Origin: Prosthecobacter gellanilyticus
GTDB taxonomy: Bacteria; Verrucomicrobiota; Verrucomicrobiia; Verrucomicrobiales; Verrucomicrobiaceae
Assembly: GCF_007992435.1 (NCBI RefSeq)
Contig: NZ_BKAG01000014.1
Span: 62,001 to 126,000 of the forward strand
Direction: 5' to 3'
DNA length: 64,000 bases
Shown: one piece after another, positions 29,087 to 55,100 of the stretch
Position numbering within the stretch: the first letter of the stretch is position 1
Layout: every line of letters starts with the position of its first letter
Notes under the pieces: model-generated
What the model was told of the DNA's origin: nothing
The model's input: the letters and a program-made list of their open reading frames with translations, nothing else
Databases searched by the model: none
Made by a program: the position numbers and the translations under genes

Positions 29087-29149
29087 AATACGCCTGGGCC
29101 ACTAATTGATGATCCCCAGGCCCCTCTAAATAAAATCGTTCCCACGCTC

Positions 29150-29764
29150 ATGTCCAGACCACACTCTTTCTCTCGGTCGTTCGCACGCGGCCACTCCGTC
29201 AATGGAGCCATCATTCTCAAGCACCTTGGATACAAAGTAGGAAGGAGCAAAAATTGGAGAAACGAGAAGCAATGGTGCTATAATTCAACCCAGGAACTGG
29301 CAAAAAAAATGCCATACCTTAGCCCTTCCGCCATCGATGCAAATATCAGAAAGTTGAAGGCGAAAGAGGTCCTGGAAATTGGATGCTACAATAAGTGGAA
29401 GCAGGACAGGACACGATGGTTTCATGTCCCCGCACATATTAGAAACGAAGTCGATAAGGACTTGGTCAGCTTTGATCCCAATGATGCTCGCACACACGGA
29501 GTGCCCGCAGCTGTGCTTCTATTCAATCTCCGCTATTGGATCAAGAAAGAACTCAAGAAGGCAACCGATACCAATGTAGCTCACGAGATGTCTCCATCGG
29601 AACTGAATAGGCATCTCCCATTTTCAGTTTCCACCATCAAGAGTGCGTTGAAGACATTGGAAAAGGCTGGAGCCATCATCAGGACCTCCAAAAACATGTC
29701 CGAATATTCTCTGCCGCCGGGTGAAATGCAGCAGTTGAGACGTGAAGCTAAGCTCAAAACCTAA
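29150..29764 (+). CDS. Winged-helix-like protein, candidate replication initiator or regulator
   Basis: 204 residues from ATG 29150; a GTG at 29081 would add 23 residues but lies inside the hairpin at 29053-29086. Two similar segments (STQELAKKMPYLSPSAIDANIRKLKAKEVLEI and SPSELNRHLPFSVSTIKSALKTLEKAGAII) look like tandem winged-helix DNA-binding domains, the arrangement found in many iteron-binding Rep proteins. Basic overall. The five iterons start two bases after its stop codon. Assignment as initiator is inference from this layout. Confidence 0.6.
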   Translation: MSRPHSFSRSFARGHSVNGAIILKHLGYKVGRSKNWRNEKQWCYNSTQELAKKMPYLSPSAIDANIRKLKAKEVLEIGCYNKWKQDRTRWFHVPAHIRNEVDKDLVSFDPNDARTHGVPAAVLLFNLRYWIKKELKKATDTNVAHEMSPSELNRHLPFSVSTIKSALKTLEKAGAIIRTSKNMSEYSLPPGEMQQLRREAKLKT

Positions 29765-29765
29765 C

Positions 29766-29865
29766 CAGTCAGAATCAGGATGGAATCAGTTGGAATCTGG
29801 ATGCCCCTAACAAATGCAGGATGAGTTCGGTCAGGATCAGGACGCAATCAGTCAGAATCAGGATG
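29766..29865 (+). repeat. Five 17-bp iterons at 20-21 bp spacing (candidate replication origin)
   Basis: Repeat starts are at 29766, 29787, 29807, 29828 and 29849. Units are CAGTCAGAATCAGGATG (first and fifth, identical), CAGTTGGAATCTGGATG, CTAACAAATGCAGGATG (weakest) and CGGTCAGGATCAGGACG. The 20-21 base spacing is two turns of B-DNA, as in Rep-protein iterons. The array lies in the only non-coding gap between the winged-helix gene and the gene at 29888. Confidence 0.85.
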
Positions 29866-29887
29866 ACATTACCCCTTGTAAACCTTT

Positions 29888-31120
29888 GTGAAACCATTGG
29901 AAGATCCATTGAAAGCACATTTAAAAGAAGTCCGCGAAGCGGAGTCTCTTCAAAATAACATTCATCATGCCAGTGTTGATCAGTCACAAGAGCTCATCCT
30001 GTGTGATGCAAAACCCATGCCTGGCTCCGCCGTTGATGCAGAGTGCAATCTCATAGATGCAGACCCTCCTCCAGACGAAATTATTGATAATTCACTCACT
30101 GAGGTCATCATGGCATTACGGTTAGAGCATGATCATCTCGTCACTCTCGACGACATCAAAGATGAAGTCTTCAATGTTGATGAGCTAACTATTTCCGAGA
30201 CTGCTTACACATGGGATCAGGTCATGACGGCTAATGATGAATTCGGTCCGGCCTTTGATTTGATCAGCACACCTCATGAACCTCGTGCTGCCAACATTGC
30301 CTGTGCTCTCAGAGATTTCATCAAGACGGCAAATCCTGAATTAATTGAGCACTTGGTTAAATGCCGTGATCCGGATGAATTACTTCGCCTCCTTGCAGAT
30401 GACTATTTGAACTACTTATCTGAGCATTGGAGCCGTCGATTTCGATCTGATCATTTCGATGAGGAGTTCACCAAGGAGCGTGCATTTTTTGCCGCACTTG
30501 AATTGCTCGTCTTAGGGTTCCAGCAAACCGATCCTTCAGAAGGCAAATGTGGGTTCGCTCCTTGGCATATCAGTTTGGTTCATGGTGCCATTGTGGATCA
30601 TTCAAAACTGGCCGATAAGGCGCGAGAGGACTTGTTGGTGGCTCGGGTGCACACTATTTATTGGGACCGTCGTGATCAGTCTGCCAGTCCAACTCGCCAT
30701 CAACAGGATGACGCCAGATTGTCCCCAGTTCAGAGGTGTAGAGTCCTGAAGAACGCCTTGATCGAACGAGTGAAGACAGGAGCTCTAATCACTCGCAAAT
30801 ATCGCAACTCAAAGGGGGAAATTCAATGCGTGGGAGTTAATTTCCGTCCTCTCCTTGTTTTTAGAGAGGGTGATCTGACGGCAGCAGAGAAGACGTTCAA
30901 AGATTATCCCGGCACAAGCGTGAATGACTTGCTGATCATCATTGATAACTGCGTGCGAGTCAAAGTTGATATGATGACCGGAAATGGGTACGACAAAGAC
31001 CCATCTTGGCATGCTGAGAAAGGTGCCGTCTTATCTTTTCTCTTCAAACATTTGGACACGATCACGCAACAGTTAAAAGATCGATATGCCTATGACTACA
31101 CCAAGCTTTTGAAGGCTTGA
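29888..31120 (+). CDS. Unknown 410-residue element-borne protein
   Basis: Start is a GTG (29888) shortly after the iterons; no better ATG is nearby. The N-terminal 100 residues are acidic and Asp/Glu/Ile-rich, the middle (ANIACALRDFIKTANPELIEHLVKC, FFAALELLVLGFQ) is helical and the C-terminal third carries VQRCRVLKNALIERVKTGALI and DLLIIIDNCVRVKVDMMTGNG. No catalytic motif recognised. It could be a replication accessory protein given its position beside iterons; this is inference only. Confidence 0.6.
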   Translation: MKPLEDPLKAHLKEVREAESLQNNIHHASVDQSQELILCDAKPMPGSAVDAECNLIDADPPPDEIIDNSLTEVIMALRLEHDHLVTLDDIKDEVFNVDELTISETAYTWDQVMTANDEFGPAFDLISTPHEPRAANIACALRDFIKTANPELIEHLVKCRDPDELLRLLADDYLNYLSEHWSRRFRSDHFDEEFTKERAFFAALELLVLGFQQTDPSEGKCGFAPWHISLVHGAIVDHSKLADKAREDLLVARVHTIYWDRRDQSASPTRHQQDDARLSPVQRCRVLKNALIERVKTGALITRKYRNSKGEIQCVGVNFRPLLVFREGDLTAAEKTFKDYPGTSVNDLLIIIDNCVRVKVDMMTGNGYDKDPSWHAEKGAVLSFLFKHLDTITQQLKDRYAYDYTKLLKA

Positions 31121-33837: not shown

Positions 33838-34797
33838 TCAAGACTTCGGCAACGTGACCACGATGAGAGCTTCTTTCTTGTCGACTTTCATCTTCTCCGC
33901 TTTGAAGGGACCAGGGATCGTGAGGAGCTGTGCATACTGGGTCCGCTGCTGAGTGTAGCCCTGGCTGTTATCGCTCCTAGCAGCCTCTTCATTTTTTGCC
34001 TCGATTCTTACGGTGGCCCCTTCGACCGTCACATTCACGTTCTCCATATTGCGGTCTGGAAGGTAAGCGCGGATAACATATTTATCGGCCTCTTCCTGAA
34101 GATCGACGGTTGCTCCAAATCGCGGGCTGTCGAAGAAGTCTCGCAAGCCATCGTCAAAACGGAATTCGTGGAATGATTCGTTGAAAATACGATCCATTTC
34201 CCGCCGCATCTTTTCCATGCGGGCAAAGACGTCCTGCTCCCGCTGGTCCAACGGAGCATAGGGCACAATGGGATGCCGTTTTAACGTCTCTAGCGAATCT
34301 GCGACGTCAGTCCCCTTGGGCACAGTGACCACGATGACGTGATCGGCCTGTTTGCGTTCCACCTGGATTGGCTTTCCAGATTGGGCCTGTTCCAACTTGA
34401 TCACCTGTTCATAGCGACCCGCGCCACTTTCGGCCGGGGCGTTGATGTGCAGTGAGTTGCCGTCCTTTCGGATTTCCACGGATTCCAAGGTGCGGCCCGG
34501 AAGATGCAAGCGCACCATGTAGCTATCCTGCTTCTCCCTCAGATCCACCGAGGCCGTCGAGCTAGACTGCTCCTCGGCGGCACCCTTAACAGTTCCCCAG
34601 GAGTCACGGAATATGTTGGACATCTCATCCTGCCATCGTTTCATCTTCTCCATAAAGCCGGGCGGAGCCTGCTCTTTTTGGGGAGGAGTTTTTGGGTCCT
34701 CCGCCAGACCTTGAAGGGTAATAAAGGATACAAAACCCGCCACACACAGCACAGCAACCATGTGGCGAACAAAGGTAAGTTGGATGTGAGTTTTCAT
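33838..34797 (-). CDS. Exported protein with two alpha-crystallin (Hsp20-like) domains
   Basis: 319 residues from the ATG at 34795-34797. A signal or anchor segment (VAVLCVAGFVSFITLQGLAE, about 12-32) precedes two alpha-crystallin-type domains, one near residues 75-165 (SVDLREKQDSYMVRLHLPGR, HVIVVTVPKG) and one near 230-319 (TVDLQEEADKYVIRAYLPDR, ALIVVTLPKS). Each is preceded by an amphipathic helix (MKRWQDEMSNIFRDSW, RMEKMRREMDRIFNESF). Hsp20 chaperones are usually cytoplasmic and single-domain, so a secreted tandem form is unusual. It is the second gene of an operon after the single-domain Hsp20. Confidence 0.85.
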   Translation of the reverse strand: MKTHIQLTFVRHMVAVLCVAGFVSFITLQGLAEDPKTPPQKEQAPPGFMEKMKRWQDEMSNIFRDSWGTVKGAAEEQSSSTASVDLREKQDSYMVRLHLPGRTLESVEIRKDGNSLHINAPAESGAGRYEQVIKLEQAQSGKPIQVERKQADHVIVVTVPKGTDVADSLETLKRHPIVPYAPLDQREQDVFARMEKMRREMDRIFNESFHEFRFDDGLRDFFDSPRFGATVDLQEEADKYVIRAYLPDRNMENVNVTVEGATVRIEAKNEEAARSDNSQGYTQQRTQYAQLLTIPGPFKAEKMKVDKKEALIVVTLPKS

Positions 34798-34866
34798 TGG
34801 ATGATGTTGGTAAAGTTTAAAGGGATGGGTGAAGGGCAGGCACAAAAGGCCTGCCCATTCTTGCAA

Positions 34867-35322
34867 TCAGCTAACTTTTACTTGGATCTGTTTGGGTTTG
34901 GCTGACTCGCTTTTGCGAACCCGGACGCGGAGCACACCATTTTTGAAGTCGGCGGTCACGCTTTCGGGGTCAGCGTCGTCAGGAAGCGCGAAGCTGCGTG
35001 AGAAGCCGCCATAAGGGCGTTCCACCCTGTGATAGCGAAGGTCCTCCCTGCCCGCCTCGAACTTGCGTTCACCGCTCAAAGTGAGCATGCCGCCTTCCAA
35101 GGTGACGTTGACATCTTCCTTGTTCACGTCAGCTATCTCGACGGCGATCCGGTATTCTTGTTCATCTTCCATGATATCCACTAGAGGCATCCATGCCGGA
35201 CCGGAGGATGAACCATTGGAGTTTTCACGATGGTTCGCGGTGGTGTTGAAGGCACTGCGAATACGATTCTGGAATTCCTCGAGCTCACGCAGCGGATTCC
35301 AGCGAACGAATGTGTTATTCAT
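34867..35322 (-). CDS. Hsp20-family small heat-shock protein
   Basis: 151 residues from ATG 35320-35322 (MNNTFVRWNPLRELEEFQ). The alpha-crystallin domain (about 45-140) contains WMPLVDIMEDEQEYRIAVEI, the GGMLTLSGERK segment and the ALPDDADPESVTADFKNGVLRVRV end characteristic of class A Hsp20. It prevents aggregation of unfolding proteins in an ATP-independent way in the cytoplasm. The gene heads an operon with the exported double-domain homologue 69 bases downstream. No CIRCE element was seen upstream. Confidence 0.95.
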   Translation of the reverse strand: MNNTFVRWNPLRELEEFQNRIRSAFNTTANHRENSNGSSSGPAWMPLVDIMEDEQEYRIAVEIADVNKEDVNVTLEGGMLTLSGERKFEAGREDLRYHRVERPYGGFSRSFALPDDADPESVTADFKNGVLRVRVRKSESAKPKQIQVKVS

Positions 35323-35762
35323 GTTGTATGGTAGGGATGTGGATAGCGACAGTTGCCGGCACCGCTGGGCTATCCTTCCAGCAATCCGGGGGCACCTGAC
35401 CTCCTGCACTCTTTCTCGAGCGCGGAAGCGGCACTCGATTTTCTGCCCTCATCAAAAGGCGTGCCAAAAGCTTTCCCCAGAGGAGGCCGTCAGCCTGACA
35501 AGTTTTGAGAGAAAAATTGGCACATTATCTGTCACAATTGTGAAGACCATATCTCATCAAGCACGCCCCAATTTAGAACACAGTTGCCGCCTGATGTTGC
35601 AGTCTTTGCTCGATGGAAAGGGCTATCGGGGCTGCAGGGTCAAGTTATGACACTCTCGTTTTCATCTCTGTAGACCGTCCTGCCCCCATAGACAAAATTG
35701 AGAGAAAGCAAGAGCCAATAGTTGACAAGAAATAAGAGGTAAACACGGTGCTTGGTCGCCGT
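35323..35762. other. 440-bp intergenic region
   Basis: Upstream of the Hsp20 operon and of the small gene at 35763. It must contain promoters for both directions, but I see no confident sigma or heat-shock motif, repeat or RNA. Confidence 0.35.
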
Positions 35763-39017: not shown

Positions 39018-39674
39018 TTATTTGTTGGCAACCAACGCAACAATTCGGTTGATGACCGACAACGCGGACTCTCGGGTGAGCAAATTAAGCCGCACCTTGT
39101 AAACCTTCCCACTCTCAACACTCACGTGCAAAGTGTCGCTAGTGTAACCAATAACCTCGCCGGCAACCTTTAAGCCGTTGTTGAAAGCAAGATCAACCTT
39201 TTGAGCTTTGATCGTTACTGGTTCGACCTTGGGAGGTTCAGGCGGTGGCGCGGGCGCTGGGGCCAGCGAGACGCTAGGCGCTGGCGTGTAGTGATAGGAT
39301 GATGGCGAAGCCGATGAGGATGAGTATGGACTCGGTGAAGTGTAGGTGCGGGATGGCGTGCTAGAGGACCCGTAGGAGCTGTAGTGGGAAGTGTGTGAGC
39401 TGTGGGAAGAATGACCTGATCGCGAGGATGAATAATGGGAAGAGTGCGACCGGTGAGAACTATGAGACCTGTGTCCCACAAGAAAAATGCCGTTCTCCAT
39501 CGCCCTTGAGGGAGTTAGTACAACAGGAGGATCTACTTCGCTTGAAGACTCATCTCTCCTCGTAAACATCAATGTCCGGCCCAAAGGTTCAGCTTCCCCG
39601 CTGCTAGGAGATAGAAGCGCTGCAACGGCTCCGGTCAGCGAAAAAATGCGGCGGAAGAGGATGCTATTCTGCAT
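39018..39674 (-). CDS. hxsA: His-Xaa-Ser system substrate protein HxsA
   Basis: 218 residues with a hydrophobic export segment at the N-terminus (FSLTGAVAALLSPSS). From His68 to Ser99 there are nine His-x-Ser triplets in two runs: HRS-HSS-HRS-HSS-HYS (68-82), a break SSRSG, then HSS-HSS-HTS-HYS (88-99). A Ser/Pro/Ala-rich linker follows, then a small beta domain (about 155-210: LAFNNGLKVAGEVIGYTSD, KVYKVRLNLLTRESAL). In the known family, such proteins are the presumed targets of the paired radical SAM maturases encoded by the divergent genes 85 bases away. The nature of the modification is not known to me. Confidence 0.92.
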   Translation of the reverse strand: MQNSILFRRIFSLTGAVAALLSPSSGEAEPLGRTLMFTRRDESSSEVDPPVVLTPSRAMENGIFLVGHRSHSSHRSHSSHYSSSRSGHSSHSSHTSHYSSYGSSSTPSRTYTSPSPYSSSSASPSSYHYTPAPSVSLAPAPAPPPEPPKVEPVTIKAQKVDLAFNNGLKVAGEVIGYTSDTLHVSVESGKVYKVRLNLLTRESALSVINRIVALVANK

Positions 39675-39758
39675 TTTTGTTAGTGTGTTCCGCTCGAGGA
39701 AACGCTAATTTATACCTAAAATCAATCCCAAAAAGCAATCGCTGAGTCTCTCAGAGGC

Positions 39759-40151
39759 ATGACTTCGGACACCCAACCAATAACGACGTATCAAAACGAT
39801 GTAACGGTGCTGGCCAATAAGGATGTCTATTCCATGAATAACATCCTTCGGACGGCCCACCGCTTTTCCGACCTGTATTTCATCGACGTGCAAGCCACAG
39901 ACGGGACGGATGTTCGAATTCTCCTGAAGGCGAAATCAGCAGCAGGTGAGGAGCCCAGTTCCCTTGAAGGCAGGTTTCTCAACGAGCTTCTGGACGGCAA
40001 GCTTCGGGAGATTATTGCCGAGGAGTCTCGCTTGGAACGGGATGTAATCCTCGCTCATGCGTTATCAAGACACCCAGTCCTTTTGAAGGAATATGAGGCT
40101 GCAGAAGCTTTCACAGATCCAGTTGGCCTCCTCACGCCTGACGAGACATGA
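39759..40151 (+). CDS. hxsD: His-Xaa-Ser system protein HxsD
   Basis: 130 residues from ATG 39759, preceded by AGAGG. Opening region NDVTVLANKDVYSMNNILRT, then AHRFSDLYFIDVQATDGTDV, and helical end. The pattern matches HxsD, the small third component always found next to HxsB and HxsC; its fold suggests a peptide-binding partner like the RRE domains of RiPP systems, but that is inference. Its stop overlaps the start of hxsB by four bases. Confidence 0.85.
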   Translation: MTSDTQPITTYQNDVTVLANKDVYSMNNILRTAHRFSDLYFIDVQATDGTDVRILLKAKSAAGEEPSSLEGRFLNELLDGKLREIIAEESRLERDVILAHALSRHPVLLKEYEAAEAFTDPVGLLTPDET

Positions 40152-41599
40152 ATGGCTTGAACCGAAGCTTTAAGGGGCCGGAGTCGTATCGGAACGGCAG
40201 CAGTTACAGGCTCCTGCCTATGAAGTTCATGCGCTTTAGGGATGACAGATATCTAGTTACCAGCATGGGCGGGGACTACATGTTTCTCAGCCAGACAAAG
40301 CTGAACGACATCGTCACTCACAAGCTTCAACAGACAGACACTTTATACCCAGATCTGTTGGCCAGTCATCTGATCGCCGATGACAGTTCAACAGCTCATC
40401 TGGATCTGCTGGCAGCCAAGTATCGAACTAGGCACTCGCGGCTTCCCTCTTGGACTGCGCTTCACATGTTCGTTACGACGCTTCGATGCGATCATTCCTG
40501 CCAATACTGCCAGGTCTCCAGGGTGTCGGAAGACCGTGAGAGCTTTGACATGACCCCAGCCATTGCTGACAGGGCCATTGGCTTAATGTTCCAAAGCCCC
40601 TCCGCATGTCTGAAGGTCGAATTCCAAGGTGGCGAGTCCTTGCTCAACTTCGATCTGGTTCGGTATATTGTTTCTGAGGCTAAGCGCCGCAATGATGGCC
40701 GGCAGCTTGAGTTCGTGATCACGACCAATCTGGCCAATCTGACAGAAGAGATCCTCAGCTTTTCAGAGGAGCATGGGATCTCATTTTCCACATCCCTCGA
40801 TGGACCAGCTGCGCTACACAATGCAAATAGGCCCAGGCCGGGCCGAGATAGCCATGCAAAGACAGAGGAAGGAATCGAGAGACTCCGTCAACGTCTGGGC
40901 AAGGACGCGGTTTCCGCGTTAATGACGACGACCGCAGCGAGCCTTGATCAGCCAGAACGGATCATCGACGAGTATGTCAGAATGGGTTTCGACAGCATCT
41001 TTCTGAGATACATAAGCCCATACGGCTTCGCCGTGAAGAGTTCGGCGAGAATTGGCTATGAGACCAAGAAATTCGTGGACTTTTTCAAGAGAGGTCTTGC
41101 CTACATTGTCGATCTCAACAGACGTGGGATCTTTGTCCGAGAGACATATACACAGATTGTGCTTCAGAAAATCCTGATGCCAGGCGCTTCAGGCTATATC
41201 GACCTGCAATCGCCCGCAGGCATGGGGATAAGTGGCATCGTTTATAACTACAATGGCGAGGTTTATTCCTCCGACGAGGGACGCATGCTGGCTGAGATGG
41301 GAGACAGAACGTTCCGGCTTGGAACAGTTCATGACACCTATGAGAAGTTGTTTCTCGACAGTCCTCTTCTGCCAATGATTCACGAATCGATGCTGGAAGG
41401 GGTTCCAGGGTGCACCGACTGCGCACTCCAACCCTATTGCGGATCAGATCCTGTGTTTCATCACCGGACTCAGGGTGACTTCATCGGTCATCGTCCAACA
41501 AGTTCATTCTGTGAGCGAAACATGGCCATCATCAAGCACATCCTAACGTTGCTCGAGGACGACAAGGAGACTGCTTCCATTCTCAAATCCTGGCTATGA
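40148..41599 (+). CDS. hxsB: His-Xaa-Ser system radical SAM maturase HxsB
   Basis: 483 residues. The radical SAM cluster motif is C114-DHS-C118-QY-C121, followed by the SAM-binding GGE in VEFQGGESLLNF. An auxiliary-cluster (SPASM-like) C-terminal region has GVPGCTDCALQPYCGSD and a later Cys in SSFCERNM. The long N-terminal 100 residues without catalytic motifs are typical of HxsB. It overlaps hxsD and hxsC by four bases at each end, so all three are translated together. It is expected to modify the His-x-Ser repeats of HxsA. Confidence 0.95.
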   Translation: MNGLNRSFKGPESYRNGSSYRLLPMKFMRFRDDRYLVTSMGGDYMFLSQTKLNDIVTHKLQQTDTLYPDLLASHLIADDSSTAHLDLLAAKYRTRHSRLPSWTALHMFVTTLRCDHSCQYCQVSRVSEDRESFDMTPAIADRAIGLMFQSPSACLKVEFQGGESLLNFDLVRYIVSEAKRRNDGRQLEFVITTNLANLTEEILSFSEEHGISFSTSLDGPAALHNANRPRPGRDSHAKTEEGIERLRQRLGKDAVSALMTTTAASLDQPERIIDEYVRMGFDSIFLRYISPYGFAVKSSARIGYETKKFVDFFKRGLAYIVDLNRRGIFVRETYTQIVLQKILMPGASGYIDLQSPAGMGISGIVYNYNGEVYSSDEGRMLAEMGDRTFRLGTVHDTYEKLFLDSPLLPMIHESMLEGVPGCTDCALQPYCGSDPVFHHRTQGDFIGHRPTSSFCERNMAIIKHILTLLEDDKETASILKSWL

Positions 41600-42765
41600 T
41601 TCCCTTAGCTGCCAAATTTCAATCGCGTCCTGAGGGACGAAGCTTCGTTGCCAGACTTACGAACGATAAAAGTCTGCCCAGCCCTCTTTGTGATGACGAG
41701 ATACTCGTATCGCGTGGCGATGAACCTGCTCCCAGTGGAAGTTATCAAGGATTGATTCGAATTGCCGGTGCCGCCCACTCGGAAGAGGAACTGATTCTTG
41801 GCGACGAGTTTTCATACCTTGATGATGGTGACATCGTCAGAATCAATGAATTCGCTGGTGAGCTCAGGGTCCTTTATCGCAAGGGCTCCTATCATAACGT
41901 CCTTTTCTTTACCGAGCGATGCAACAGCAGGTGCCTAATGTGCTCGCAACCTCCACGGGACGTCGACGATGAATATCTAATCGATGACATCCTCGAGGCA
42001 ATTCCCCTCATGTCGCAGGATACCAAGGTGCTGTGTATCACTGGCGGAGAGCCCACCATTTTGGGCTGGCGTCTCATCGAGGTTCTGACAGCTGTGTCGA
42101 GGTATCTTCCTGACTCCTCGCTGCACATGCTCAGTAACGGCAGAGCATTCGCATATCGTGCGACCGCGAAGGCTGTTAGCCAGGCAGGCTGTCGCGATCT
42201 GATGATCGGGGTGCCTCTCTATGCAGACATTGCAAGCGTTCATAACTTTGTCGTTCAGGCAAGGGACGCTTTTGACCAGACGATCAGGGGAATGATGAAC
42301 CTGGCCCGCTTCAACATCGCACTCGAAATTCGTTTTGTGATCCATCGTCAGACGGTCTCACGCCTTGTTCAGACCGCTAAATTCATAGCTCGCAATCTTC
42401 CCTTTGCGTCACAGGTGGCATTCATGGGCCTGGAGACCATTGGCTTTACTCGATCAAACCTGAGCGTTCTATGGATTGATCCCTGGGAATACCGAGACGC
42501 TTTGAGAGAGGCTGTCACAATGTTAGCTGCAGCCGGAATGAGGGTGATGGTCTATAACCTGCCCTTGTGTTTGATTCCCGAGGAAATCTGGCCGTTTGCA
42601 CAGCAGTCTATAAGCGACTGGAAAAACATATACATGCCCGAATGTGCTGGCTGCGCAATGAAGGCGCAGTGTGCAGGCTTCTTCGCGTCAGCTTCATTCA
42701 AATATAGTGACCATATCAGACCGTTTGATACAGTGAGTCAGCTTCCATCCTTTTCGATCATCTGA
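41596..42765 (+). CDS. hxsC: His-Xaa-Ser system radical SAM maturase HxsC
   Basis: 389 residues. The cluster motif is C109-NSR-C113-LM-C116 in FTERCNSRCLMCSQPPRD, with CITGGEPT the SAM-binding segment. The C-terminal MPECAGCAMKAQCAGFF gives a Cys-x2-Cys-x5-Cys auxiliary-cluster pattern. Its N-terminal domain (about 1-100) is unlike that of HxsB. It is the last gene of the operon and its end overlaps the convergent gene at 42738 by 28 bases. Confidence 0.95.
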   Translation: MIPLAAKFQSRPEGRSFVARLTNDKSLPSPLCDDEILVSRGDEPAPSGSYQGLIRIAGAAHSEEELILGDEFSYLDDGDIVRINEFAGELRVLYRKGSYHNVLFFTERCNSRCLMCSQPPRDVDDEYLIDDILEAIPLMSQDTKVLCITGGEPTILGWRLIEVLTAVSRYLPDSSLHMLSNGRAFAYRATAKAVSQAGCRDLMIGVPLYADIASVHNFVVQARDAFDQTIRGMMNLARFNIALEIRFVIHRQTVSRLVQTAKFIARNLPFASQVAFMGLETIGFTRSNLSVLWIDPWEYRDALREAVTMLAAAGMRVMVYNLPLCLIPEEIWPFAQQSISDWKNIYMPECAGCAMKAQCAGFFASASFKYSDHIRPFDTVSQLPSFSII

Positions 42766-43172
42766 TCTAACAAATCTGTCGCGTCTGCCGGGACTACTTC
42801 ATCATGCCCCTCATGAACAATGAGAAGATCATATCCGGAAATTCGCTTTAACTCGAGCTTTGTTCCTGCTGGAAGCTTCCTGAGTCCGACCGCCTTGTTC
42901 CCTTCCCACCGCTTTACCTCAACAGGAAGTCGAGTGGTAATAAATTTTGGCACATAGCTTTCAGGGGTATGAGCGATACCTCCAGATGCGGGAATCGCTG
43001 GTTGCACTTGTTGCGGGCTGCCACTCGGGGAGAGATAGTTGCTTGGCTGTGCATAGTTGAGAGGACGACCTGAAGGTTTGTCGCCGCCACACCCTTTGGC
43101 CATGAGTCCGAGGCCAAACATGACAATCCCAACTATCATTAGGTTTGAGCAACCGTCATTCTTTTTTGCCAT
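42738..43172 (-). CDS. Small exported or membrane-anchored protein next to Hxs operon
   Basis: 144 residues from ATG 43170-43172 (MAKKNDGCSNLMIVGIVMFG). A single hydrophobic anchor (residues about 11-27) precedes a Pro/Ser-rich linker and a C-terminal beta domain (VEVKRWEGNKAVGLRKLPAG, KLELKRISGYDLLIVHEGHDE, VVPADATDLLDQM). The last segment resembles small SH3/SHD1-like modules. It overlaps hxsC by 28 bases on the opposite strand. Function unknown. Confidence 0.65.
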   Translation of the reverse strand: MAKKNDGCSNLMIVGIVMFGLGLMAKGCGGDKPSGRPLNYAQPSNYLSPSGSPQQVQPAIPASGGIAHTPESYVPKFITTRLPVEVKRWEGNKAVGLRKLPAGTKLELKRISGYDLLIVHEGHDEVVPADATDLLDQMIEKDGS

Positions 43173-43834: not shown

Positions 43835-44677
43835 CTATTTGTTAGGCGCTGGCATTCCTTCCACGACAAGATCCACCACAACCGGAAAGTGATCACTGCC
43901 AGGCGTGTCTTTGAGAACCATTGCCGCAGGCCTACCCAGATCTCGAACATAGATGTGATCGAGGCAGGCATCTGGATATCTTCCCTTCCCCGGTATTGTG
44001 ACCCTGTGCTCTATTGGGATTCCCTCAAAAGCCCAGAAGAATCCAGCTTCCTCGATCTTCTTCAAAGTTCTGTCGCCGGCTAGATTGAGCTGTTCCTTCG
44101 AGGTATTGAAATCACCAACCACAACCACGCTTTCTTTTGGTTTGGCCTGGCTCTTCACGTGGTCGATGAGCTGCTCCATCGCGTCTTCACGTTTAGACGT
44201 ATTCTCGACCGGATTGCCAAGATTGCTTTTTAAATGGAGGCCATAAACGTGCAGTGGCTTTTCTGAGATCATCAGCTTCGCATATGCATAGCCACGAGGA
44301 GCATTGGCCCAGCCCCTTTTCCACGACTCTGCCCACGCTCCATCAGCCGGGAATCGAGAAAGAATGGCTATCTGTTGCTCGCCTATCGAACCGTTGAAGC
44401 TGTCTTTGAAACGGCTTGTGACATGGACGCTGAAGCCGGGAAGAAGTCTGGCCAGTTGTTCAGCAGTCTCAGCATTCCGAACCTCCTGTAGAACGATTAC
44501 ATCAGCTCGAAACTGAGGAAGAACCGCGGAGACCTCGACGACATGGGCATCACGTTCAGCTTGAGTCGCACCTGGCTTTTTTCCTGGGTACCATTCAAGA
44601 TTCCAGGTCACGACTCGAACAACATCAGCACCGTGACTGATCCCCAAGAAAAGAGCGAAGAGGATTAACCACCGCAT
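43835..44677 (-). CDS. Secreted endonuclease/exonuclease/phosphatase-family protein
   Basis: 280 residues with signal peptide (MRWLILFALFLGISHGAD). Catalytic motifs: VTWNLEWYPG (Asn), VLQEVRN (Glu), YGLHLKSN, VVVVGDFNTSK (Asp and Asn) and the terminal SDHFPVVVD (Asp-His), all as in the EEP superfamily. Members hydrolyse phosphodiesters of nucleic acids or of phospholipids; the exported location favours extracellular DNA or lipid. Its start overlaps the stop of the gene at 44665 by 13 bases on the same strand, so the two are one operon. Confidence 0.92.
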   Translation of the reverse strand: MRWLILFALFLGISHGADVVRVVTWNLEWYPGKKPGATQAERDAHVVEVSAVLPQFRADVIVLQEVRNAETAEQLARLLPGFSVHVTSRFKDSFNGSIGEQQIAILSRFPADGAWAESWKRGWANAPRGYAYAKLMISEKPLHVYGLHLKSNLGNPVENTSKREDAMEQLIDHVKSQAKPKESVVVVGDFNTSKEQLNLAGDRTLKKIEEAGFFWAFEGIPIEHRVTIPGKGRYPDACLDHIYVRDLGRPAAMVLKDTPGSDHFPVVVDLVVEGMPAPNK

Positions 44678-45186
44678 ACTTTACAGGCTATTCCGTCAGT
44701 CGGTCCACAAGGCCTCCCCGAACCAAAATAACGGCAGCCGGAATTGTGTCGCTTTCCAGTCGAGCTGATAACGTGACTAGCTCCTGGCGAAGACGTCTGT
44801 GGAGATGAGGGCGTCAGTGAGTTCGATCCAGTCGAAGGTCGATAGGTCGGTGCAGGCGTTGAGACTACCTGACGACGCAAGGCTTCGTTCTCCTGCTGTA
44901 GTTGGGAAACTTTTGCTTCGAGCTCAGATATCCTTCTCAACAAAGCTTCAGAATCCGGCTTGGATCCGGCCGTTATCGCCTGGCGAGACTCTGAACTGAG
45001 TTTGTCCAACGGGAGTCGAACCAAGCCGAAATCGGTCATCAAGGTCACTTCCACCTCCGTTGAGGACATGACTCGACCCTTGAGTTTAGACCCATCTACA
45101 AGGCTGATGCCCATTGGTGTGTCGGCAGCAAGGCACTGACCAAGGCACGTTATGACGGCGGCAATCAGGAGGATTGTGGTTTTCAT
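44665..45186 (-). CDS. Exported protein with Cys-rich C-terminal motif
   Basis: 173 residues with signal peptide (MKTTILLIAAVITCLGQCLA). The first mature segment is a beta module (ISLVDGSKLKGRVMSSTEVE, LVRLPLDKLSSESRQAI) similar to the C-terminal domain of HxsA. A coiled coil (LLRRISELEAKVSQLQQENE) and Ser/Thr/Pro linker follow. The tail SGCRYFGSGRPCGPTDGIAC then KVCGG provides four cysteines (a metal- or disulfide-binding motif seen in other planctomycete/verrucomicrobial small proteins). Co-transcribed with the EEP-family gene downstream. Confidence 0.75.
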   Translation of the reverse strand: MKTTILLIAAVITCLGQCLAADTPMGISLVDGSKLKGRVMSSTEVEVTLMTDFGLVRLPLDKLSSESRQAITAGSKPDSEALLRRISELEAKVSQLQQENEALRRQVVSTPAPTYRPSTGSNSLTPSSPQTSSPGASHVISSTGKRHNSGCRYFGSGRPCGPTDGIACKVCGG

Positions 45187-46167: not shown

Positions 46168-49100
46168 TTAAAGTTGGTCAGCCAGCCCAGTTTTCACGCT
46201 AAGACGCCCCGGGTCAATCGTTGGAGGGACTCCAGTTCCTGGAGCTCGTTGGTAATTCTGCGTATAGTCACATACATCTTTAAAGGAATGAATATAACTA
46301 CCCCCAATGCTTGTGCCATTCGCATAATATCTGTCCTTTCCTAGATATGTGAAATTTTCATTAACCCAATGGGACGGTGGCGGGGGATTCGTATTTTTGT
46401 TCCAAAGCTTTCCTGTGTCGCCTGGAATCCAATCGTCGGCTACCGCGTCAGGAGTAGTCTTCGAATTGTTACCATTGTAATTTGACCTTGGGTCATATGT
46501 TCCTTTGTTGTCCGCATAGTCCCCCATCATTCTAGCGAATTCTCCGGGCTTCGAACAATCCATAGCTCCGCCTGGTGTGTCCCTCAATTGAGTTAGGGCG
46601 GTCTTCCAATCCGTTGTAGGTTCCCAGTAGGATCTGAGTGAACCATCTTTGCGTCTTCCTCCCGTGAAAACTTCCTTCCAAGACGAAGCTGGATATACAG
46701 CACGACCGCTACTGAATACAACATTTTTTGCGAATTTCTCGAGGTATTCCACTGTTGCAATTCTCGCCTTCACGTGGGCGTCAAGATCAGCGACTGTTCT
46801 AAAGCTAAATTCTCGAGGCGAGGCAATTAAACATGAAACGATTTCGGACTGCAGAGTCGTTGTCACCTTTGCAGTTCCTGTGATCATGACGATCGAATCT
46901 CCGCTAAGTGTCGTTCCTGTGCCAGGCTTGGAGGAATGACCCGACACACCTGCACCCGTAATGTAGCTGGCAAATGCCGACTTCTCCTTTTGGGGCACTC
47001 TAAGAGCCAGCCCACGTGGGTCAAAAGCGGTCCACGGATTTTGCTTCACATAGGCGTAGAGGTTGGGGCCGTCCACGAAGCCAGCGGGGTCGCGGCTCAA
47101 CCACACGCCCGTCTCCAGATCACGGTAGCGGAAACCCTCATTCAAAAGGCCTGTTGGATCTTCATCCTTGCTGTTGCCACGTTGTTTGTCCGCATTCGTT
47201 CCCGTCTCTTTGGTACGCTTGCCAAATGCTTCATAGCTGGCGGTCCACGTTACCTCGCCTGAAGCATTAGTCTGTGCTACGATGTCTCCACGCCCATTGC
47301 TGAGGTTGAATTTGGTAATGCCACTTCGCTGCGTGAAGAGCAGTCCACCCACGCCCCCACCCATGTCTGGGCCTCGTGTATAGACCACCTCGGATGTCGT
47401 CGCAGTAAAGGCTCCGGAACTGTCCGCAACATGCTCAGAAACACTCAACCCACCAGAGAATACGATTGCCGTATATTTGACGGGCTCACCCGGCTTGGCC
47501 AGCGTCGTGTGAATCCGGCGAGTGCGATAGTCATAACGATGAAACCACAATTGCGTTCCCGTTGGTTTGGTATCGTGCACCTGAACCAGTCTGTTGAATG
47601 TGTCCCAGGTATAGGAACTGGAATGCGTTGTCGTGCCTCCCGTATCGTAGTTCGTGGAGTGCAGGCTTTTACGATTGCCGTTGAGGTCATACGTCAGGTT
47701 TTGCCATTTTAATGTGTCCCCCGCAGGGCTGCGCTCTTCGGCAATGACGAGCTGATTGGCGTTGTTGTAGGTGTAAATCCATTTCGTTGGCTCGGCGGCA
47801 TCAGCTACGGTGCCATCTGGATGGGTGACCGTTTTGCTGATTCGGTTATGGGAGCTGTCATAGGCATGACCGGTGACCAGGCGAGGAGCAGTGGCCGCCA
47901 GGCTCAGGGAAGCCGCTTCCCGAACTTCCTCTTTGGACAAGCGGTTGGACGCGTCATAGCTCATCGAGGTGATCCGAGCCCTGGCGGTTCCGCCACCACT
48001 GCCTGTCCATTGCTCGGATTGGGAGGTCACATTGCCCAGAGCGTCATGTGTCCATGAAAAACTTGCCACCACGCTTTCTGCCGATGGAGGATCCACAGCT
48101 CCTGGAGCAAGAAGCTGACGATGAGTAAGACGCCCAAGGCTGTCATAGGTATTGCGGGTGGACTGCCCGTTGGCTGAGGACAATGTCAGGGCACGTCCGG
48201 CAAGGTCATAACCGTAGCGTGTCGTTTTTTTGGCCGCATCAAAGCCTGTCAATGGGCCTTCATCGATACTCAGGGGGCGGTTGATCGCATCGTAGCTTGT
48301 CACCGTTCGGCGGCCATGCGCAAACGTTGCTGACAGGCGGTTGCCAGCAAGGTCATAGGTATAACGGTGGGTCACGCCCTCGCCTGCAATGTAGCGCCTG
48401 CCCCCCATGCGGAAAGGCTCATAGGTGATCCCGCCTCGTGTTTCTGAGATCATCCTGCCCAGATCATCGTAGGCATAAGACAGGCACCCGTCTGGGGCGT
48501 TGGATTCATAGACGATGGTCAAACGACCGGCAGAGTCATAGACTATGTCCCGGTAAGGCCGTGGACTTTCGGGCATGGCATTTTCAATGTCATAAGTCAC
48601 TCGTTTGAGACGGTTGCGCAGATCGTATGCATAATCGGTTGTTAGACCCTTCGGTGACGTCTCGGAGACCTTGTTGGCACCATCATAGCGATAAGTCCAT
48701 ACGTCAGAAACTGCGTCCGCACCATAGCTGAGGCGTGATCCTTGGAAGGTCTGGGTAATGAGACGATTCTGAGCATCATAGGCAAACGTCGTCGTCTTGC
48801 CCCGTCCATCGGTCACGGACGTTCTGTTACCTGCGGCGTCATAAGCGAAGTTATTTTGAATGCCCGAGTGGTCCGTGGTGCCGATCAGCCTGCCAAAGGC
48901 ATCGTAAACGTTGGTCACCGTTTGATCCAGCGCATTCGTGGTCGTCAACACATTGCCTTGGGCGTCCAAGGTCAGCTCAGACTCGTTGCCGAAGTCATCT
49001 ACCGTTTTGACGAGCCTGCCCGCAGGGTCATAGAACTTGGTCGTCACTGCCCCCTGCGGGTCGGTCACCTCAAGGACACGTCCACTGGGATCATAAACTG

Positions 49101-52100
49101 TGCTGATCATCGGCGACACCATCGGTGATCCGACTGGTTGCGAGGCGTCCACAACCAGAGGATGTGTCACCCTGGTCGGACGGTTACGGGCGTCATACTG
49201 TGTCGTGGTGGTATTACCCCGAGGGTCAGTAACACTTGTGGAATTGCCAACCAAATCGTAGTGAGTGAAGACCGATGTGGAAAGAGAATTCTTCTGCACA
49301 TTGATGCGCAGGGGCATCCCGGATGCATCAAAATGAGTGGTGGTCTCAATACCGTCCTCGGAGATGCTCTTCCAGGGTTTCCCATGAGGCGTGAGCATTT
49401 GCAAAACATGCGAACCGTCAGCAAAATAGGTATCAATCAGGCGATCCTGACAGTCGTAGATTAGAGCCTTGTTGGCTCCGATTACCGGCCCCGCCTGAGC
49501 GATAGGCTGAGGTGAGGCTGACATGTTGCGATAAGTGAACACAACCACACCCGCATCAGGAGCCCGCTTCGTCAGCGGCCTGTAAATAGCGTCGTAGGTG
49601 ATGTATGTTTCATTCCCGCGAGCATCGAAGGCGTGGAGAGGCTTGAATCCAGAAACATCAAACACCGATCCGCCAACGAAGTCCTTGGTCTGTGACCGGC
49701 TCTTAGAAAGCCCTGTATCGGGGTCAACAAAAGGAGTGGTTAGGTGGTTGTCCGTAAAATAGACCGTGATGCGCTCTGCCGGATTTGTGGCCGAGGCGTT
49801 TGTCACCGAGCGAATAGGCCTGCCTAGCAGATCGTAGGTCAGTTCTGTCACTGTCCCGCGTGCGTCCACTTGCCGAACGGGCAGACCGAGATCGTTGTAA
49901 CTAGTGGACGTGACAATGTCTGCTGGTGCTGCATCAGCGAGGCCGTTCCCGTTGAGGTCCACTGTGCTTTTGACCCTGCGGTTCAGCGCATCGTATTCGT
50001 GGAAAACATTCCTGAAACATTCGTCTTGTTCCTGGATGATGTTCCCATGGGGGTCATACTTGATACGCTTGATAGCCCCATCCGGGAAATGGGTCAGCGT
50101 GAGACGGTTACGCGAGTCATAGTAAAAGCGTGTGATTCGCCCGAGCGCATCTTCGGTCGATGCAGTGTTGCCGTTGAAATCATGAATCGTCTTCGTGGTA
50201 CTGGTCTGGCCATCAATGATCCGCTCTTCGATGACGGTCCGCCACCAGTAGTCGTTCTGGTTCGTAAATGCGGCAATATTGCGCTTGGTGACGATGGATG
50301 GCGCGAGTCCTGCGGGAGGTGCATGCTGATCCCAAGGAGCTTGTGAGGCTGTGGGGTTGGAACTAGGAAGTGCCGAAAGAGTCTCCCTGGTCACGATCCC
50401 CGGGAACAACGAGTTCTCATACTCCATTGTTTTGCGGGAACCTCCTGCGTGTGGAACACCGCTGAATGCAATTGGTGAACCGTATCCCGTAACTTCAGAA
50501 AGCCTGCGCCCATACGGCTGCGTCAACGGGTCAGTCGGCATGTTCTCAAACCCATAAGACGTCACAACACCTTCCCCCGAAGCTGCGAGATGCGACACTG
50601 AGGCCAGCTGTCTGGTGGCTGGGTCATAAGTGAAACTCTTCGTGTGCCCCATAGCGTTGATCTCCAGTGTCGGATCGTCATATTTTCCAACACCGAATGA
50701 AACCACAGTTGAACCGTATTTAACTTTCACCACGCAATTGTCCCCGTAACCAAAAGTCGTTTTATGGCCGTCTTGATCCTCAGATTCAGATAACGCAAAA
50801 TGGGCTTGTGGAAGAAACGTGAACTTCTCCACTCCACCCATCGGGTCGACGATCCTCATCTTGGTGAATGTATATGTGGGCGTCTCGTCATCTGGGACAG
50901 TGATTGCATAGGGGATCGGCTTTACGGGATCCGCAAATTCGTATCGGTAGACACGGTCCTTACCGTCACTCTGACGGACAGTGAACGAGGTTGTGATTTC
51001 GCTGTCGCCCTGGGCGACGGCCACAGTCTTCTTTGTGATTATCACAGGCGGTCCCTCCGGCGGGCTAACGGCCGTGAGAACCAAGGGCGATCCTTTCGGC
51101 AGCTTTTTTGTGACATCCGCCACTGAAACAAAAGTGCCGGAAGACGGCTGCAGCTGGAAAACATAGGTATTACTGCGTTCATCTGTGATCGAGGAGACAG
51201 CCACGTGCTGATGCGCGACTCCCAAAAGGTCATTCTCTTCCACCTCGTTAATCAATGTATGTCCATACTGGACTGCCGCAGAGCCACGCTGCACCTGCGT
51301 TAACAGCACGTCATCCTGAGGAGTAAACTTTGCTTGATCACTTACCTGTCTGATGATGGAGAGACCGGCTGACTGGGAGTACGTGTAATTCGTCACATCA
51401 CCTCCAGGGCCCTTGACTGCAACGACCTTGCCTCCTTCCTGAGTGATCGTGATTTTATATCCTGGTCGCTTGAGGTCTTCAATGGAGGAAGGAATCAACG
51501 TGGAGTACGATGGATAATGGTAATGGAGCTCGTTGCCGAGCCGATCCCTAACCTTGATCAAACGGGCATACTGAAGGCGCGTCTTTGACTCGGAGCCTAC
51601 AACTCTGTCATTCGAATAGAACTGGCTAAGCTCCGTGGGCAGCAATTCTTCATAGGTGCACACCGTGCCGAATTTCTTATGCAACGTTAATTGGCCGCGA
51701 GACGACATTGTCTGGAGAGACGCGTGGCCATAACGCATGGCCGATCCTGGGTTTCCAGGCTGATCAGGAAGCTCTACGACGGGGGCGGTAACGACGTCTC
51801 CCACCAACACATTTTGACTGGATTTGGCGTCATCACTTTCTGCAAAGTTATGATACCAGAAAGGTCCCTGCACATGTTGGAACACCTGCGATTGTCCAGC
51901 CTCGTCAACGACCGTCGCTTTGGTTCCTTCGAAGGTGATGTAGCTGCAAACATTGGATGACCAGCCTGGCCCGAAAGGGAGATCAGGTCTCTCAGAAGGA
52001 CGAAGACCTGATCTGACATTGTAGCAACTCGGAGCCAGATCTCTACGCACCTGCAACGGTAACAAGCTGCCCTCCGCCTCAACAAATACGTCGCTTACCG

Positions 52101-55100
52101 AGTGCCTGAGCTGCGTGGTATAGGCATCGATATAGGTTTCTTCACCTCGTTGTCCGCTTTCGTCTTGGACTTGCGGCTTCGAATCAGCCATGGGCACCCC
52201 GTTGAGTCCAACCTTGCGGTAACGTGAGCCAGCACCATCGTTGAATTGGAAATCGTCGCTTTCGCCATCCTCTGCCTCACCTGAATCCCAAAGAGTTACC
52301 ATGATCATCTTGCCATCTGTAGGCGAGAATTGAAGGGGCTGACTTTTATTTTGGCCTTGAGGGATCTCTACCTCCTGAATCTCTTGAGTAAGAAATTGAG
52401 GTTCGTCATTCGCCCTGAGTCGATAAGTCCTGACGAGCAGCTTGAATGGAGGAAGAACCTGAACTGCGTCCGCTTCTATCTCGACGCGGACCTCCATTGC
52501 ATATGCGTCACTGTTAGGGTGGTCGCCGCCGCCGTTGGGAGGAGGAGGGTCGTTCTCATTGGGAAGATGTTCTTCTAAATCTCCCCAGTGAAGCCCGTTC
52601 ACGAAAGTTCTAAATATTCCCCAGCGAATCTGAGGATCGGGAAGATCTGGATCATAATCAGCGTCATTGGATGAAATAATCTCATATTCTTGAACTGTTT
52701 CGACGGACTCCTCACCCACATAAGTTTCTCCAGGATGATTACGGCAGGGCGTTGTGTCCCCGGCAAAATCAGGAACTTCTTTGTCAGGCACATGCTCCAA
52801 AACTCGTGTCAGAGGGTTATCTACACTAGCCTCCCCGTCGTCAGAACGCGTGAACATACCGGTAGGCCCTTGAGGCACAAAGTACCTGTCCACTGCCAGG
52901 AACGGACCGCCGCCCTCCACTTCAGGCTGCTCATACTTTGGAACGTCGTCCACCAGAACAAAACTTCCTGGATTTCCTACTGGCAGTTCGGAGGGAACGA
53001 CAGGCTCCGCGGCCACAGGCAACACCCCAGGCTGAACAGGGATCTCAGGAGGAAGATTGGGAGGGACCGGTGGAGTCGGAGATGGCCGAATTCGAATCGA
53101 GCATGGAATTGAATAAGATCTCTTGTAAGCATCCGTGACGCTTACGCTAAACGAAAAACTGCCAACTTGGCTTGGCCTTCCGCCAAGCACACCAGATGCG
53201 GACAACGCCATACCCGGCGGGAATGAACCTCCTTTGATTTGAAAAACGGGAGATTCTGCGTTGGTGAGGAATTGCGTCGATGGATAAGGCTGGTTCAAGT
53301 ATCCAGACACCAGAGTTGGCACACTCAATGTTAGAGGAGCCAGGCATCCAACCTTGACCAATGCCTCGGAGAATTTCCCATTGTTCTCAACACGGACAAT
53401 CGCACCGTACTGTCCGACTGAACTAATCTGTCCCGCCAATACTCCCGTCTCAGCATTTAACGCCACTCCTTGAGGTAGCGGAAGCAGTGGAGCTGGTGGT
53501 GGAGCCGTCTTGATTGTGAAATGGCTGGCGCCTGCCACCCCGCCTGAACGCGGAATGGCAAGATTGAAGGTTTCCCCGGTAGCGACAGCCTTGGTCGTAT
53601 CATAGATTTTGATAGGACCTCGGATTTCTGGCCGTGGAGACACGCTCAGACGAATTGGCATTAGCTCATACTCACGCGTTTGTTCCGAGGCGGATGCTTT
53701 CTGCCTCACGATGCAGGGTAATTCGATAGTTCCGACATTATCTGCGGTGCCTTCGATTGTCACCACACGGCCATCCTGCGTCAAACTCAGCCAATCGGGC
53801 AAATTGCTTCCGTCCACAATCAGCTCTTCAAATTCAGGAGGAGGAACACCAAAGGGCAACGTGAATGTGTCCCGAAGTTCAAACGTCACCGAGAATTCAT
53901 CCTGTAAAACAGCCGAAGTAGCCCCCTCTGTTACCACGAGTTCAGCAACGGGAACACCGATATGAACACGTCGCCGTTGAGTACTACCCATGCCAAAATT
54001 CGGCGTTGCCGCGACGTCAATATAGGTGTGATGAAACCCTCCCGGCACATCGCCTCGCAACGTCCTGCCTTGAAGGTGCAGCCAGTCCAGTGCAGGATTG
54101 TCCACCACCGTCAGCATGCCCGCACCGGCCGCAATTACCGCATCAACCACTTTAGCTTGATAAGTATTCTCATTCTCATCGAGACGATCCTCCATCGTGA
54201 CTGGAACATAGGGAGTCAGAATACTGATCGGATCCTCAGGCGGAATTTCGACAACCTCACGCACTTCAAGCCATACCTGTCTCTGTGTTGATCTGCCTAA
54301 AGCGTCTATGGCTGTGACGGAAAACCCATACACAGTTGGCTCGTCGCGGTCGAGCATTCCTGACACTTGGTTAGTGACGGGGTCCAGGGTTAGTCCCTCT
54401 GGAAGAGATGGTGAGAATGTGAATTGATATGGGCCAAGTCCACCTGTCGCCGACAGCTGCACCGGCCCATAGGCTGTTGTAGCCCCTTGGTAGGCTGGAA
54501 AGAATGGCGCCGAAAGAGTAAGCGGCTCAGCTGAGACAATGGTGAACGTCTTTGACACACTGCGGATCGTGTCGTCCTTAACTGTCAAAGTAAACGTCAC
54601 CGGGTCCGTGCTCCCTGACAATGAGCCAACCACCTTGCCATTCTTAATTTCAAGGCCCTCGGGGAACGATCCACTCATTTCAAAACGAACTTCTCCCTCC
54701 GTCCCTGTCACCTTCAAATCGACAGGGCCGTAAGGCATTAATGGTCTTCCTGGTGGGAAAGTCGCGTTGAAGGTCAGTGGCAGAAAACCGCGGCCAATAT
54801 AGAACTGCCGCGAGAAAGACGCCCCCGCATTGTCGGTGACTCGAAGCGTGAATGACCAACCTGGCTCGCCGCCAGGGTTGACCATGGTCCCTGAGATTCC
54901 ACCGGAGCTTGTAAGATCCAAACCTGGTGGGAGACTTCCCGCGACCAAAGAAACCTGGTAGCCGCCAGCGCCTCCGATTAGAGATACAGCGCTCTCGTAC
55001 CGGATTCCCTTGATAACTGCCGGAAGGTTTCCGGACATGCTCAATGGGGGTGGCGGTGGTGGGCTGTCCTGCTCACGGAATGAAAGCTCGATGTTCCTCA

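What the first reader, a model, noticed from the sequence alone, without database searches (positions are those of the whole stretch)
39018..42765. Complete His-Xaa-Ser (Hxs) radical SAM maturation system
hxsA is divergent from the translationally coupled hxsD-hxsB-hxsC operon (two four-base overlaps). Two radical SAM enzymes with auxiliary-cluster cysteines face one exported repeat substrate. The family is known from genome mining, but the chemistry and purpose remain largely open, so this locus is a good case to study.
Basis: established knowledge. Interest (0 to 1): 0.8.

Follow-up and report, generated by a model that had tools for sequence, protein, structure and literature searches.

The report
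His-Xaa-Ser protein maturation cassette
Four neighbouring genes encode an exported-looking protein with a His-x-Ser repeat and the two radical enzymes and helper thought to modify it; the system is known, its chemistry is not, and this copy carries an unusual form of the repeat protein.

Summary
Confirmed: hxsA (39018-39674, -) stands divergent from hxsD-hxsB-hxsC (39759-42765, +) with two ATGA overlaps. HxsB and HxsC pass their NCBIfam cut-offs easily; HxsD falls just short; HxsA matches four HxsA models only through its repeat and passes none (as do 7 of 9 other HxsA tested). It is an Hxs system. Added here: (1) HxsB is a SPASM-type radical SAM enzyme that keeps one set of four auxiliary-cluster cysteines (41 of 41) and has lost the other, where D-E-x-R-M is invariant. 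(2) The HxS block keeps its form (Ala at -2 in 35 of 43; HYS closes 38 of 49 blocks) while the tail behind it changes between lineages: PG-binding, PEGA, others or none; the window's tail matches no Pfam family. (3) The domain fused to HxS in the nearest relative resembles the gene beside hxsC (42738). (4) HxsB is absent from 47 other same-genus genomes but present on hundreds of plasmid records. Best reading: HxsB and HxsC modify the HxS segment in the cytosol, most likely by His(i)-Ser(i+2) cross-links of triceptide type, before export. The system is secure; the chemistry is inference (about 0.35), and the purpose is open.

The parts
39018..39674 (-). hxsA: 218-aa substrate with signal-like N-terminus (by eye), two HxS blocks, Ser/Pro-rich linker and a C-terminal domain without a Pfam match; no Cys
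39378..39473 (-). core of HxsA: blocks HRSHSSHRSHSSHYS (residues 68-82) and HSSHSSHTSHYS (88-99), each closed by HYS
39675..39758 (.). 84-bp gap between the divergent starts of hxsA and hxsD; probably holds both promoters (inferred; a sigma-70-type scan found none)
39759..40151 (+). hxsD: accessory protein, predicted beta-alpha-beta-beta-alpha core with C-terminal helices
   Evidence: TIGR03976 45.3 bits, cut-off 50; AlphaFold pLDDT 81.5, pTM 0.62; no Foldseek match at E <= 0.001; best VIA Z 8.0
40148..41599 (+). hxsB: SPASM-type radical SAM enzyme; RS cysteines C114, C118, C121; one auxiliary set C422, C425, C431, C455; invariant D376, E377, R379, M380; N-terminus with strands then helices as in an RRE
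41596..42765 (+). hxsC: second radical SAM enzyme; RS C109, C113, C116; four further invariant cysteines C325, C350, C353, C359
42738..43169 (-). possible fifth gene: convergent with hxsC (28-bp overlap), hydrophobic N-terminus (by eye) and a C-terminal domain like the tail of the Bryobacterales HxsA; role inferred
   Evidence: BLASTP E 5e-6 for the pair, 12 of 50 identical; Z 9.1, 0 of 2000 shuffles; only 1 other of 96 genomes matches, without a full HxsB

Best explanation
A four-gene His-Xaa-Ser (Hxs) cassette. HxsA is made with an N-terminal signal and is captured before export; HxsB, through its own RRE-like N-terminal domain, and HxsC act on the two HxS blocks, with HxsD as an accessory subunit. 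The modified chain then leaves the cytoplasm and is displayed outside, held by its C-terminal domain. The most likely chemistry is oxidative cross-linking within each H-x-S unit, His imidazole to Ser beta-carbon (i to i+2, as in triceptides), up to nine links of -2 Da each; the conserved closing HYS may mark the end of the run. Shown: gene set, repeat, cysteine sets, exchange of tails, wide horizontal occurrence. Inferred: that HxsA is modified (0.85), C-C cross-link (0.35), export (0.8), the roles of HxsC and HxsD, and any biological purpose.
For: Family matches of HxsB and HxsC and gene order. HxS proteins beside hxsB in 40 of 46 loci scanned. Invariant RS and auxiliary cysteines in 41 of 41 full-length HxsB and 40 of 40 HxsC. 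HxsB model matches thioether synthase 5why, TigE 8vpo, anSME and ChlB, all in the PDB as radical SAM proteins. No Cys in HxsA, so thioethers are excluded. Spacing i to i+2 with aromatic donor as in triceptides: MscB joins Phe to Ser C-beta, HaaB and ScaB join His C2 to Ala C-beta, YhhB His C2 to Arg C-beta (PMC11002830, passages). The order of Ala at -2 and the closing HYS (38 of 49 blocks, 6 of 230 other units) looks like recognition of a defined core.
Against: HxsB scores best, outside its own family, with PapB (101.6 bits) and below that with cyclophane families (YhhB 66.2, GrrM/OscB 54.9, AmcB 51.2, FxsB 48, all far under their cut-offs). It lacks one auxiliary set; whether known cyclophane enzymes do too was not tested. 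HxsD and HxsA fall below their cut-offs. Export was judged by eye. Motif counts are not corrected for relatedness, and H and S are fixed by how units were picked.
Confidence: 0.55

Rival explanations
1. HxsB oxidises Ser in HxS to formylglycine, as anaerobic sulfatase maturases do; the aldehydes, perhaps joined to His by HxsC, make a reactive or cross-linked surface protein.
For: anSME is among the best profile and structure matches (4k36 to 4k39), and TIGR03942 matches at 1.9e-16. Ser is the fixed residue of the unit.
Against: anSME has both auxiliary sets; HxsB has lost the one with the PCD loop. A fixed His two residues before Ser is not needed for this chemistry (recalled anSME motifs).
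Confidence: 0.15
2. HxsA is chiefly a histidine-rich metal-binding protein outside the cytoplasm; the maturases only tune or stiffen the ligands (for example by epimerisation or single links).
For: Nine His in 30 residues at fixed spacing of three; a copper-binding ribosomal peptide with His cross-links is reported (PMC10206099, title in search listing).
Against: Ser and the closing HYS are as conserved as the pattern of His, which simple metal binding does not need. No metal gene was listed beside hxs in most of the 17 plasmid or phage stretches read; chrA lies about 11 kb away in one Klebsiella plasmid and a siderophore receptor about 3 kb away in Sphingobium.
Confidence: 0.2
3. The cassette here is a decaying import: genes are present but the substrate has drifted and is no longer modified.
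For: HxsA and HxsD are below their cut-offs, and no other genome of the genus has HxsB (0 of 47).
Against: All four frames are open; all 14 conserved cysteines of HxsB and HxsC are kept; both HxS blocks are perfect. Failing the HxsA cut-offs is common among HxsA beside intact maturases: 7 of 9 others tested fail.
Confidence: 0.07

Closest known systems
His-Xaa-Ser (Hxs) system, NCBIfam TIGR03976 to TIGR03979 (described by Haft and Basu 2011, recalled; cited in PMC9062424, passages)
   Same: hxsA, hxsD, hxsB, hxsC side by side; HxsB and HxsC over the cut-offs
   Different: hxsA divergent, the only such case in 40 loci; HxsA passes no HxsA model; tail without a Pfam match
Bryobacterales Hxs locus (L002)
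   Same: Nearest HxsB, 59% identity, sister on the tree (100/99); same D-B-C order
   Different: hxsA co-directional and upstream of hxsD; its tail resembles the window's 42738 product, not the window's HxsA tail
Triceptide (three-residue cyclophane) systems: XncB, OscB, MscB, YhhB, HaaB
   Same: SPASM-type radical SAM enzyme and a motif with an aromatic residue two before the acceptor (PMC11002830, passages)
   Different: HxsB is far below those families' cut-offs; two radical SAM enzymes instead of one; tandem units on an anchored protein rather than a small peptide
Thioether synthase 5wgg/5why (CteB, name recalled), anSME, TigE, ChlB
   Same: Fold and core motif; Foldseek E 1.8e-16 to 1.6e-12
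   Different: HxsB lacks the cysteines of the PCD/PCH loop and the fourth Cys of CX2CX5CX3C; HxsA has no Cys

Membership tests
Hxs system | HxsB over TIGR03978 cut-off | tested here: met
   614.9 against 370 bits
Hxs system | HxsC over TIGR03977 cut-off | tested here: met
   381.6 against 267.9 bits
Hxs system | HxsD (TIGR03976) | tested here: inconclusive
   45.3 against 50 bits, full-length match and right place; R83, R94, S103 invariant in 22 HxsD
Hxs system | tandem His-Xaa-Ser repeat protein encoded beside the maturases | tested here: met
   nine units in two blocks, 84 bp from hxsD
HxsA equivalogs (TIGR03979, NF038296, NF038309, NF038313) | score over the curated cut-off | tested here: not met
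   30.9/121.65, 17/48, 18.2/65, 15.8/55; of nine other HxsA only a Klebsiella one (162.8) and an HxsA2 (90) pass a model. So it is not filed as an HxsA equivalog, only as the HxS substrate of an Hxs system
Hxs system | modification of the HxS segment | not testable with these tools
   needs mass spectrometry; no chemistry found in the library
SPASM radical SAM enzymes with two auxiliary clusters | full seven-cysteine motif | tested here: not met
   PCD-loop cysteines and fourth Cys of CX2CX5CX3C absent from the aligned columns; four others in 41 of 41. Stray Cys in the 352-393 region in 3 of 41 (L011, L018, L098) and in 432-440 in 1 (L097)
Triceptide-forming enzymes | match to a named cyclophane maturase family over its cut-off | tested here: not met
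   YhhB 66.2/445, GrrM/OscB 54.9/310, AmcB 51.2/425, FxsB 48/370
Triceptide-forming enzymes | aromatic donor at i, acceptor at i+2 | tested here: met
   H-x-S by definition of the repeat; precedents. Resemblance of motif only, not of product
RiPP recognition element (PqqD-like) in HxsD | PqqD-like winged-helix fold | tested here: inconclusive
   predicted order beta-alpha-beta-beta-alpha-alpha-alpha; no significant match

The most novel reading that the evidence does not exclude
The HxS block is a portable chemical head. HxsB, a SPASM-derived enzyme with an invariant D-E-x-R-M loop in place of one auxiliary cluster, and HxsC turn it into an unbroken run of His-Ser three-residue rings capped at HYS. 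Mobile elements carry the cassette between phyla, and each lineage re-docks the head on its own outer anchor, here on a new domain with a possible split-off partner (42738), in a chromosomal spot whose relatives hold anti-phage or peptide-modifying cargo.
Probability: 0.18. Interest if true: 0.78.

Novelty: new variant of a known kind. Interest (0 to 1): 0.5.

Why it matters
HxsB-like genes covering at least 80% of the query sit on 393 plasmid records, yet no chemistry or role turned up in the library searched. The comparison gives testable parts: a fixed core with a closing unit, an enzyme with one auxiliary set and a named replacement loop, and a mass prediction. If the inference holds, tandem His-Ser rings on an anchored protein would be a new kind of bacterial surface material.

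Tried and rejected
Island borders: the aminotransferase gene at 19503 is matched in 46 of 48 genus genomes, own included, but in six stretches read beside it (one only 5.2 kb) no other of the 30 window genes tested matched at 1e-8, and in the reverse test of five stretches against 112 kb of this contig only that gene region matched. No tRNA, no Rfam family over its threshold and no flanking direct repeat of 22 bp or more. GC of the hxs genes (0.51-0.53) does not stand out from the window (0.538). So no empty site was found and the borders stay unknown.

HxsA tail as SHD1- or SH3-like: not established. No Pfam family reached its cut-off or E below 0.09. Against the domain of 44665, 40 of 2000 shuffles score as high; against the L002 tail, 956 of 2000. 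In 68 family genomes only the own one and G203 (E 0.003) match.

Hxs as a defence system: PADLOC gave nothing for two window neighbours (37975, 42738); the hxs genes themselves were not sent. HxsD as RRE: neither supported nor excluded; no PqqD chain is among the rows shown.

Conserved neighbours: across 35 loci (five to ten kb of flank where held) the clusters shared by three or more loci are mainly A, D, B, C and antisense frames of them; three or four related loci share other frames. On mobile elements the neighbours differ; an S8 peptidase with an AAA/ATP-binding gene lies near hxs in two (L100, L108) and thermonuclease genes in two (L094, L095), too few to use.

Rows dropped: five partial HxsB (L031-L034, L036) and two HxsC (L006, L036); with partial rows kept the four auxiliary cysteines of HxsB stand at 32 of 33 (C425: 32 of 35). 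The tree left out those five and L005, L009, L021. HxsD was found by BLASTP in 22 of 35 loci; I did not pursue the 13 misses.
Full report
What is there. Both overlaps are ATGA and the divergent gap is 84 bp. HxsB scores 614.9 bits (cut-off 370), HxsC 381.6 (267.9), HxsD 45.3 (50). HxsA fails all four HxsA models (30.9/121.65; 17/48; 18.2/65; 15.8/55) and matches only through the repeat. This is not rare: of nine other HxsA scanned, only a Klebsiella protein (162.8, TIGR03979) and an HxsA2 (90, NF038296) pass a model; one with a PG-binding tail misses narrowly (113.8) (several were given with rough starts). HxsA has 11 His, 46 Ser and 10 HxS; none of 20,000 shuffles reached 10. Nine units form two blocks; the tenth, at residue 183, lies in the tail.

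The repeat in relatives. Forty-six loci were scanned: 36, nine plasmids and one phage. Forty hold a protein with at least three tandem units, 43 proteins in all; L005, L007, L016, L032, L034 and L036 do not. In L005, L007 and L016 hxsB starts within 700 bases of the contig end. In 49 blocks with 279 units, x is S 110, R 74, Y 44, A 23, others 28. Y takes the last unit in 38 of 49 blocks and 6 of 230 other units. Three of 49 blocks lack an aromatic residue in the last x or the next five. Residue -2 is Ala in 35 of 43 proteins; the window has Val. H and S are fixed by how units were picked, and nothing is corrected for relatedness. Of seven further plasmid stretches, five hold such a protein (L103 the same as L097), only one of them closing with HYS, one with Cys as x; L106 and L108 show none. 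The window is the only one of the 40 loci with hxsA on the other strand.

The tail. Behind the block come PG_binding_1 over its cut-off in all 11 proteins so labelled (alphaproteobacteria, Bacteroidota, Klebsiella, Aeromonas); PEGA over the cut-off in two myxobacterial proteins, 13 against 20.8 in a third and no hit in a fourth; in Calothrix a domain with a sub-cut-off match to TftA (2.1e-10, 39.9 against 500 bits) and no Pfam hit; an unassigned domain in Bryobacterales, another in the window; or nothing. On a tree of 38 HxsB the window pairs with the Bryobacterales protein (100/99); the six tail labels need seven changes on the best tree (least possible five), PG-binding three, of which supported branches force two; the Klebsiella row is a long branch of unsure place. 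A smaller tree of 30 without the plasmid rows needed only the minimum of four for its five labels. So exchange of tails is indicated by the wider set, not by the smaller one alone.

A possible fifth gene. The frame 42738-43169 (-) overlaps the end of hxsC. Its C-terminal domain aligns with the tail of the Bryobacterales HxsA (12 of 50 identical, E 5e-6 for the pair; Z 9.1, 0 of 2000 shuffles). The window's HxsA tail resembles neither. A domain fused to HxS in the nearest relative and encoded beside hxsC here hints at partnership, on one case.

The enzymes. Aligned by profile to the thioether synthase 5wgg and to anSME, HxsB has no Cys opposite the PCH/PCD loop nor opposite the fourth Cys of CX2CX5CX3C, but keeps CX2CX5C and a distal Cys. 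In 41 full-length HxsB, C114, C118, C121, C422, C425, C431, C455 and D376, E377, R379, M380 are in all; stray Cys occur in the loop region in three and after C431 in one. By recalled anSME numbering the kept set is AuxII and the lost one AuxI; the distal Cys is beyond the printed alignments, so its assignment is inference. I saw no mention of this in the listings and passages looked at. In 40 HxsC three RS and four further cysteines are invariant. The HxsB model (pLDDT 82.7, pTM 0.84; residues 1-8 and 349-361 under 50, so the loop before the DExRM stretch is poorly modelled) matches 5why (1.8e-16), TigE (3.4e-15), anSME (5.4e-14) and ChlB (1.6e-12). Its N-terminus shows strands then helices, as in an RRE (RRE of these enzymes recalled). 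HxsD is predicted as a small alpha/beta core with helices and has no significant solved match.

Distribution. HxsB over the cut-off occurs in 2 of 288 genomes of the order (own and G050), with a contig-end fragment at 369.5 bits in G271; among the 47 other same-genus genomes there is none. Of plasmid records 483 match, 393 over at least 80% of the query; 322 of the 483 are Klebsiella and 342 typed conjugative; weak matches include other radical SAM enzymes. Thirteen phage records match, two over at least 80%, one a Leptospira phage with hxsA, D, B and C annotated. Passages in two papers name Hxs genes in a list with integrating-element and phage genes (P. aeruginosa, PMC8446631) and at a Vibrio parahaemolyticus position that holds a galactitol cluster in another strain (PMC6537148).

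The spot. Seven of 48 genus genomes, own included, match the nuclease-like gene 43835; in G049, G076 and G090 it is close (76, 68, 71-85%) and 44665 lies beside it. Near them are a radical SAM and RimK-type ATP-grasp pair (G049), a resolvase and a CD-NTase with SLATT effector (G076), and SIR2-like and DAC-domain proteins (G090). In the window an integrase (23303) and a D5/DUF5906 protein (27611) lie upstream. Whether hxs belongs to that element is not shown.

Mechanism. Radical SAM enzymes are cytosolic (established knowledge), so an exported substrate must be modified first. HxsA has no Cys, so thioethers are out. His-x-Ser fits the i, i+2 rule of triceptides, with precedents for His donors and for a Ser acceptor (PMC11002830, passages). 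Against it, HxsB scores best with PapB, not with cyclophane families. Modification stands at 0.85, the C-C link at 0.35. What it does outside the cell is open: metal binding, surface structure, or competition.

Verdict. A real, intact Hxs system of known kind with an unassigned substrate tail. It is worth study mainly because the chemistry can be tested directly.

Noticed in passing
window 23303-31120: Phage-type tyrosine integrase (23303-24529, PF00589), D5_N/DUF5906 protein (27611-29032) and an HTH-like protein (29150-29764): looks like an integrated satellite-like element upstream of hxs.
   Followed up: partly
window 43835-45186; L076, L077, L078: A nuclease-like gene and its neighbour mark a spot with different cargo in related genomes: radical SAM plus ATP-grasp, CD-NTase plus SLATT, SIR2-like plus DAC.
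   Followed up: partly
L077 9786-11802: CD-NTase (SMODS, AGS_C) with SLATT_6 effector, an apparent CBASS.
   Followed up: no
L076 5860-8963: Radical SAM protein nearest to CefB (221.6 bits, cut-off 600) with RimK-like ATP-grasp and an unassigned 303-aa protein: possible unnamed peptide-modifying cluster.
   Followed up: no
window 46168-58836: A 4222-aa ORF with Rhs/YD-type repeats by eye; no family search was run on it.
   Followed up: no
window 33838-35409: Two adjacent ORFs that look like Hsp20-type proteins by eye; the first has only weak partial matches (23-25%) elsewhere in 48 genus genomes.
   Followed up: partly
window 59281-60726: FGE-sulfatase domain protein (PF03781, 3.5e-35).
   Followed up: no
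L100 6631-9404 and L108 8904-11279: S8 peptidase beside an AAA or ATP-binding gene near hxs on two plasmids.
   Followed up: no
L104 5293-5625: A Mesorhizobium HxS protein with Cys as x in its last unit.
   Followed up: no
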